Source: Amygdalobacter nucleatus | Lineage (GTDB): Bacteria > Bacillota > Clostridia > Saccharofermentanales > Fastidiosipilaceae | Reading direction: 5' to 3' | NCBI RefSeq assembly: GCF_029167365.1 | Contig: NZ_JARFNM010000001.1 | Coordinates: 1,108,001-1,172,000, forward strand | Length of the DNA: 64,000 nt | In this document: in pieces, positions 32,362-32,443 of the stretch | How the letters are laid out: every line of letters starts with the position of its first letter | Position numbering within the stretch: the stretch's first letter is position 1 | Translations under genes and position numbers: made by a program | The notes under the pieces: model-generated | What the model saw: only the letters and a program-made list of their open reading frames with translations | What the model was told of the DNA's origin: nothing | Databases searched by the model: none

Positions 32362-32409
32362 GTCTGTCTGTCTGTCTGTCTGTCTGTCTGTCTGTCTGTC
32401 TGTCTGTCT
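32362..32409. repeat. Tetranucleotide microsatellite, 12 x GTCT (AGAC on the gene strand)
   Basis: Twelve perfect GTCT units (48 bp) about 120 bp upstream of the surface-protein ATG. Such tracts change length by slipped-strand mispairing. The gene-proximal promoter candidate would start transcription at the first repeat unit. Confidence 0.95.
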
Positions 32410-32414
32410 CAAGA

Positions 32415-32443
32415 ATTGTCTATGTAATTTCATAGCTTGTCAA
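32415..32443 (-). promoter_or_regulatory. Candidate promoter of the surface-protein gene
   Basis: TTGACA (32438-32443) is a perfect -35; GACAAT (32415-32420), 17 bp away, is a 4/6 -10. Predicted start is near 32408, at the edge of the GTCT tract. Confidence 0.5.

What the first reader, a model, noticed from the sequence alone, without database searches (positions are those of the whole stretch)
32362..32443. Microsatellite at the promoter of the surface protein: predicted phase variation
Twelve perfect GTCT units start at the predicted transcription start of the adhesin-like gene, just after TTGACA-N17-GACAAT. Gain or loss of 4-bp units would alter the initially transcribed sequence and leader. 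Comparable tracts switch surface genes in other pathogens and commensals.
Basis: partly seen in the sequence, partly recalled or inferred. Interest (0 to 1): 0.8.

Follow-up and report, generated by a model that had tools for sequence, protein, structure and literature searches.

The report
Repeat-tuned on/off switch for surface protein
A stretch of repeated GTCT (read AGAC on the gene's strand) in front of a bacterial surface-protein gene most likely lies inside a tiny leader gene whose reading frame, reset whenever a repeat is gained or lost, decides whether a premature stop signal for transcription shuts the surface gene off; the same layout recurs before surface genes in many gut and vaginal Clostridia.

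Summary
The tract is real: twelve perfect GTCT units at 32362-32409, upstream of a 1519-aa KTGE-anchored surface protein on the minus strand. This genome has only three such tracts, all before KTGE surface genes; two further surface genes keep short remnants.

Phase variation is plausible, but probably not by changing a promoter. The tract lies inside a leader ORF (ATG 32433) followed by a strong intrinsic terminator (32286-32326, U8), then the gene. Four-bp units shift the frame. With n=12 the leader stops 33 nt before the stem (predicted OFF); with 11 or 14 it stops inside the terminator loop (predicted ON).

About 40 leader loci from named Clostridia show the same anatomy. Upstream start codon, one immediate-stop frame and terminator exceed shuffled controls, and the pattern replicates in a held-out set. 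Some related loci differ in unit number and predicted state.

Danne et al. 2014 (PMC3894217) demonstrated this mechanism for the S. gallolyticus pil1 pilus with GCAGA repeats. This is therefore a new variant: a tetranucleotide version, multi-locus here and widespread in Clostridia. Repeat variation within the species and expression were not testable here.

The parts
32362..32409 (-). (AGAC)12 tract (GTCT on +), read as (TDRQ)n in the leader ORF
   Evidence: TRF 12.0 copies, 100%; leader translation
32359..32433 (-). Leader ORF, 24 codons at n=12: MKLHRQFLRQTDRQTDRQTDRQTD*; ATG 32433-32431, TAA 32361-32359
   Evidence: Translation; ATG position matches the ATG 21 nt before the tract in most related leaders
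32339..32341 (-). Alternative leader stop (TAG) used when n=10 or 13; 12 nt lie between it and the terminator stem
   Evidence: In-silico unit gain/loss
32301..32303 (-). Alternative leader stop (TAG) used when n=11 or 14; lies in the loop of the terminator hairpin
   Evidence: In-silico unit gain/loss
32348..32373 (-). Short hairpin formed by the last repeat units and CTGCCTG; possible pause hairpin
   Evidence: RNA fold (z -2.8); similar hairpin enriched in related leaders
32278..32326 (-). Intrinsic terminator in the leader: 41-nt hairpin 32326-32286 plus U8 32285-32278
   Evidence: -22.4 kcal/mol, z -7.25, 0 of 200 shuffles as good
32415..32443 (-).
   Evidence: 10 of 12 consensus positions; conserved at this distance from related tracts
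32465..32470 (-). TATAAT, candidate -10 of a promoter upstream of the leader ORF (no good -35)
   Evidence: Sequence; related leaders have strong promoters in this zone
32249..32254 (-). GGAGAG ribosome-binding site of the surface gene
   Evidence: Sequence
27684..32243 (-). Surface protein gene, 1519 aa: signal peptide, List_Bact_rpt (PF09479), KTGE sortase-type C-terminus
27617..27646 (-). Terminator-like site after the surface gene

Best explanation
The tract is the hypermutable part of a phase-variable leader-peptide attenuator. Transcription starts upstream of the tract and yields a leader RNA carrying a short ORF (ATG 32433), which runs through the AGAC tract, then an intrinsic terminator, then the surface gene. 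Slipped-strand gain or loss of 4-bp units moves the leader ORF between three frames. In one frame (n=12, as sequenced) the ribosome stops 33 nt before the terminator stem, the hairpin forms and transcription ends (OFF, low). In another (n=11, 14, ...) the ribosome stops inside the hairpin loop, prevents it folding, and RNA polymerase continues into the gene (ON). The third (n=10, 13, ...) stops 12 nt before the stem, probably intermediate or ON. Shown here: tract, leader ORF, frame-dependent stops, terminator prediction, recurrence across loci. Inferred: slippage in the population, translation of the leader, termination and its relief.
For: Window anatomy: tract, leader ORF and alternative stops, terminator -22.4 kcal/mol with z -7.25. 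Own genome: four loci (window, L015, L016, L019) have an ATG-led leader ORF through the tract, one early-stop frame and a frame reaching the terminator; L016 currently reads through its terminator and L015 would after one added unit. Leader loci from genome contigs plus own and Mageeibacillus-like genomes, discovery set: one frame stops within 7 nt of the tract in 22/25 (null 10.8); >=1 frame reaches the terminator 21/25 (null 17.1, P=0.026); both 19/25 (null 6.7); open ATG 26/28 (null 12.2). Held-out loci L147-L185: 13/16 (null 7.2, P=0.0025), 13/16 (null 10.1, P=0.064), 11/16 (null 3.9), ATG 21/22 (null 10.7). Terminators without selection on energy: 19/26 vs 1.05 and 14/14 vs 0.4. SD-like 38/47 vs 14% background. 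Upstream promoters >=10/12 in 14/27 vs 1.3. Downstream genes: 22/30 with a secretion-type N-terminus vs 20% background. Related loci differing in unit number and predicted state: L122 n=11 (stop +9) vs L196 n=10 (in frame with the gene), 295/300 identical downstream; L155 n=11 (stop +3) vs L158 n=12 (through terminator); one leader kept in L017/L019/L187 with tract length changed. Experimental precedent: PMC3894217.
Against: No transcript, ribosome-profiling or isolate data for this species. In the window itself the leader ATG has only a weak purine-rich SD (AGAAAG), and the upstream promoter is only a TATAAT without a good -35. The reach-the-terminator statistic alone is weak (P 0.026 and 0.064). 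The conserved TTGACA-N17-ANAAT motif is not needed by this model and is unexplained. Loci share ancestry to an unknown degree, so the shuffle P values are optimistic. L017 lacks the leader ATG.
Confidence: 0.72

Rival explanations
1. One reading: TTGACA-N17-GACAAT is the main promoter, transcription starts at the tract, and unit number changes initial transcription or the 5' UTR directly.
For: 10/12 consensus match exactly next to the tract; the same TTGAC at -28 to -33 and ANAAT at -5 to -8 recur at most related tracts; in the window it beats the upstream candidate by consensus.
Against: It does not explain the open ATG in the spacer, the single immediate-stop frame, the SD-like sequence, or the stronger promoters further upstream in half the loci. 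The same motif sits inside hsdS and acyltransferase coding sequences, where starting transcription there would remove the start codon. The tract does not change -35/-10 spacing.
Confidence: 0.12
2. RNA-only switch: the AGAC tract pairs with other leader segments (for example AGACAG with CUGUCU in the terminator 3' arm) and tract length tunes terminator formation without translation.
For: AGACAG is complementary to CUGUCU in the window terminator, and the last units form a short hairpin.
Against: The complementarity to the terminator arm is absent from most related leaders, whose terminators end in other sequences. A single repeat copy would suffice for such pairing, so length should not matter. 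It predicts no reading-frame signature.
Confidence: 0.06
3. The tract is incidental, or the switch is decayed and locked at this locus; the terminator simply lowers basal expression.
For: L017 has lost the leader ATG and L017/L019 retain only short tracts; the window leader has a weak SD.
Against: Twelve perfect units with no interruption, at one of only three such places in the genome, all before KTGE surface genes; the leader architecture is intact.
Confidence: 0.1

Closest known systems
Streptococcus gallolyticus pil1 phase-variable attenuator (Danne et al. 2014, PMC3894217)
   Same: Short tandem repeats not divisible by three inside a leader-peptide ORF, a premature intrinsic terminator before a surface-structure gene, and frame-dependent leader stops either tens of nt upstream of, or inside, the hairpin. 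In pil1 this was proven with terminator, ATG/RBS and stop mutants and with chloramphenicol.
   Different: Unit is 4 bp CAGA/AGAC, not 5 bp GCAGA; single surface proteins rather than a pilus operon; several copies in one genome; many Clostridia; extra conserved TTGACA-N17-ANAAT motif at the tract; nothing tested experimentally here.
Clostridioides difficile cwpV switch (PMC2784873, listed; mechanism from general knowledge)
   Same: Phase-variable cell-wall protein in a clostridium, with a leader RNA terminator deciding ON or OFF.
   Different: Controlled by a recombinase-inverted segment, not by repeat number; no good flanking inverted repeats were found here.
Promoter or 5'-UTR microsatellite switches (H. 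influenzae HMW, N. meningitidis NadA, Moraxella UspA2, Mycoplasma vlhA; largely from general knowledge)
   Same: A simple-sequence tract next to a surface adhesin gene alters expression.
   Different: There the tract changes promoter spacing, factor binding or UTR length; here it lies in a leader ORF ahead of a terminator.
Coding-frame microsatellite phase variation (hsdS, acyltransferases)
   Same: The same TTGA(CAGA)n tract encoding (TDRQ)n occurs inside such genes in the same Clostridia.
   Different: There the frame decides whether the protein itself is made; here the frame of a separate leader decides transcription of the next gene.

Membership tests
Phase-variable leader-peptide attenuator (pil1 type) | Tandem repeat whose unit is not a multiple of 3, inside a leader ORF | tested here: met
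   (AGAC)12 inside the ATG 32433 ORF; open ATG enriched across loci
Phase-variable leader-peptide attenuator (pil1 type) | Ribosome-binding site before the leader ATG | tested here: inconclusive
   SD-like 4-mer in 38/47 leaders; in the window only a weak AGAAAG
Phase-variable leader-peptide attenuator (pil1 type) | Premature intrinsic terminator between repeats and gene | tested here: met
   -22.4 kcal/mol, z -7.25, U8; 19/26 and 14/14 loci vs about 1 by chance
Phase-variable leader-peptide attenuator (pil1 type) | Leader stop far from, or inside, the terminator depending on frame | tested here: met
   Stops at 33 nt before, 12 nt before, or in the loop; pattern replicated in held-out loci
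Phase-variable leader-peptide attenuator (pil1 type) | Promoter upstream of the leader ORF | tested here: inconclusive
   Strong in 14/27 loci; in the window only TATAAT 32470-32465
Phase-variable leader-peptide attenuator (pil1 type) | Repeat number varies in the population and correlates with expression | not testable with these tools
   One assembly held; related loci in other genomes differ in unit number
Phase-variable leader-peptide attenuator (pil1 type) | Translation-dependent relief of termination | not testable with these tools
   Needs reporter, ATG and terminator mutants
Promoter-spacing microsatellite switch | Tract lies within or just upstream of -35/-10 so that spacing changes | tested here: not met
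   Tract starts downstream of both hexamers
Invertible-DNA switch (cwpV type) | Inverted repeats flanking the promoter or leader segment | tested here: not met
   Only imperfect AT-rich arms, 70-82% complementary
Amino-acid biosynthetic attenuator (trp type) | Leader peptide rich in the regulated amino acid, before biosynthetic genes | tested here: not met
   (TDRQ)n leader before a surface gene

The most novel reading that the evidence does not exclude
The conserved unit TTGACA-N17-ANAATY-TTGA(CAGA)n, found at the same spacing in leaders, in hsdS and in unrelated enzyme genes, marks a dedicated portable phase-variation module of Clostridia, in which the promoter-like sequence has its own role: a second promoter giving a short repeat RNA, or a signal that creates or destabilises the CAGA tract.
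Probability: 0.2. Interest if true: 0.8.

Novelty: new variant of a known kind. Interest (0 to 1): 0.62.

Why it matters
Stochastic attenuation by a repeat-bearing leader peptide was demonstrated for one streptococcal pilus. If the reading here is right, it is a recurrent device of Clostridia (named hits include Butyrivibrio, Blautia, Coprococcus, Anaerotignum and Christensenella relatives, and the vaginal Amygdalobacter/Mageeibacillus group), used mainly for cell-surface proteins. It can be predicted from sequence alone, including the present ON or OFF state from unit number modulo 3, so surface heterogeneity in unculturable gut and vaginal bacteria could be read from long-read metagenomes.

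Tried and rejected
P0001 search of genome contigs for orthologs with flanks: no relatives. Rfam on window, L015 and L016: no known riboswitch or leader at the tract. A fourth exact TTGACAGACAG site (C1:1349944) lies in coding sequence and is not a member. RNA-only antitermination by AGACAG/CUGUCU pairing: not conserved in related terminators. Invertible promoter: no suitable inverted repeats. The simple terminator scanner missed the leader terminator because its stem has mismatches. My first terminator statistic used loci already selected for terminators; it was redone without that selection. Mageeibacillus-like ortholog of the window protein (L006/L020): no repeat tract there.

Full report
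Observation. The window contains a perfect (GTCT)12 at 32362-32409, the only strong microsatellite among 33 TRF rows and absent from shuffled sequence. The gene it precedes is on the minus strand (27684-32243), 1519 aa, with signal peptide, a Listeria-Bacteroides repeat (PF09479) and a KTGE sortase-type C-terminus. TTGACA (32443-32438), 17 nt and GACAAT (32420-32415) are present as stated.

Organism. The genome is 1,614,203 bp in 3 contigs; window GC is 39.0%. The size and GC match Amygdalobacter nucleatus KA00274 (1.61 Mb, 39.3%), and G006, with a 1,809,746-bp contig, matches Mageeibacillus indolicus (1.81 Mb), in the table of PMC11318147. This identification is an inference.

Own genome. (AGAC)4 or longer occurs at three places only, all before KTGE surface genes: the window, C1:313430 (14 units, L015) and C1:929416 (6 units, L016). 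Two more KTGE genes (L017, L019) have two- to three-unit remnants at the same spot. A profile search finds about 19 KTGE-type C-termini in the genome and there are sortase genes.

The missed parts. In every one of these five leaders a hairpin followed by a U run lies between the tract and the gene's ribosome-binding site. In the window it is 32326-32286 plus U8, -22.4 kcal/mol, z -7.25. Four of the five also have an ATG shortly before the tract, opening an ORF through it: MKLHRQFLRQTDRQ... in the window, MIWHENALTDRQ..., MELCETALTDRQ... and MKKLTKSMTDRQ... in the paralogs. Because the unit is 4 bp, each gain or loss changes the frame after the tract. In the window n=12 stops at 32361-32359, 33 nt upstream of the hairpin stem; n=10 or 13 stops at 32341-32339; n=11 or 14 stops at 32303-32301, inside the hairpin loop. 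L016 presently reads through its terminator; L015 would after one more unit.

Other genomes. They fall into two classes: tracts inside long ORFs (hsdS, acyltransferases, adenylating enzymes; these gene names are read from the translations, not searched), i.e. ordinary frame-shift phase variation; and leader tracts like the window's. In a sample of 382 good-quality genomes of the class, 7 had the motif, so it is scattered, not universal.

Tests. Null models shuffle dinucleotides. Leader loci seen first, plus own and G006/G248 loci: one frame stops within 7 nt of the tract in 22/25 (10.8 expected, P<0.001); at least one frame reaches the terminator in 21/25 (17.1, P=0.026); both in 19/25 (6.7, P<0.001); an open ATG within 45 nt in 26/28 (12.2, P<0.001), most often exactly 21 nt before the tract. 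Loci L147-L185 were not examined before these tests were fixed: 13/16 (7.2, P=0.0025), 13/16 (10.1, P=0.064), 11/16 (3.9, P<0.001), and 21/22 (10.7, P<0.001). One held-out locus (L154) is the same place as L189 of the first set, so the sets overlap by one. Terminators without selecting on energy: 19/26 vs 1.05 and 14/14 vs 0.4. SD-like sequence before the leader ATG: 38/47 vs 14% background. Promoters scoring at least 10/12 upstream of the leader: 14/27 vs 1.3. Downstream genes look secreted in 22/30 vs 20% background; domains include InlB-type repeats, BspA leucine-rich repeats, VWA, Big_2, dockerin, adhesin P1 and a pilus-presented adhesin. Shared ancestry among loci makes these P values optimistic.

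Variation between genomes. The leader of L017/L019 has a close relative in the Mageeibacillus-like genome: terminator and flanks are conserved but the tract is 2-3 versus about 14 units. L122 (Coprococcus catus strain, n=11, leader stops 9 nt on) and L196 (a contig of G540, a genome whose other contig matches Blautia schinkii by length, n=10, leader in frame with the surface protein) are 295/300 identical downstream. L155 (n=11, early stop) and L158 (n=12, through the terminator) are another such pair. This shows tract change between relatives with a predicted change of state; it is not proof of switching within a strain.

Mechanism and precedent. The best reading is translation-dependent attenuation set by tract length. 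Exactly this was demonstrated by Danne et al. 2014 for S. gallolyticus pil1: GCAGA repeats in a leader peptide, low expression when the leader stops tens of nt before the terminator and high when it ends next to or inside it, with terminator deletion, ATG/RBS mutation, added stops and chloramphenicol as proofs (PMC3894217). I found no later generalisation in the searchable library, which holds only open-licence papers.

What remains open. In coding loci a transcript starting there would lack the start codon, so this is not simply the gene's promoter. It may be a second promoter or a signal tied to the tract. In the window the upstream promoter candidate is only a TATAAT (32470-32465) and the leader SD is weak, so the promoter assignment at this locus is uncertain.

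Verdict. Observation confirmed; interpretation right in outcome (phase variation predicted), probably wrong in route. New variant of a known kind.

Noticed in passing
L067-L185 (TTGA(CAGA)n loci): TTGAC at -28 to -33 and ANAAT at -5 to -8 are tied to the tract start in leader loci and, more loosely for ANAAT, in coding loci including hsdS, although start codons lie in between in several; cause unknown.
   Followed up: partly
L075, L088, L091, L092, L095, L131, L139, L186 and others: The same CAGA tract sits in what look like hsdS genes (by translation) between the central helix (YYRD.LLTF) and the second half, with 9 to 58 units: likely phase-variable type I restriction specificity in Clostridia.
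   Followed up: partly
L068, L069, L077, L106, L117, L141: CAGA tracts near the N-terminus (M....ILTDRQTDRQ) of genes that read like acyltransferases and adenylating enzymes: classical coding-frame phase variation candidates.
   Followed up: no
L067-L185: Many public contigs end 0-3 nt after a CAGA tract, so assemblies break at these switches and under-report them.
   Followed up: no
L033:1000-1100 (G000 C1:771000): Another KTGE-type gene has a strong leader terminator right before its RBS but no AGAC tract, and its coding frame appears shifted.
   Followed up: no
23096-23197 (window, minus strand): Isolated KTGE sortase-type C-terminal fragment in a 37-aa open frame: remnant of a surface-protein gene.
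   Followed up: no
L017:5979-6040 versus L019:8770-8850: Paralogous leader in which a short deletion removed the leader ATG and TTGACA, predicting a switch locked off.
   Followed up: partly
53093-53219 (window, minus strand): Rfam L10 ribosomal protein leader, a normal autoregulatory element.
   Followed up: no
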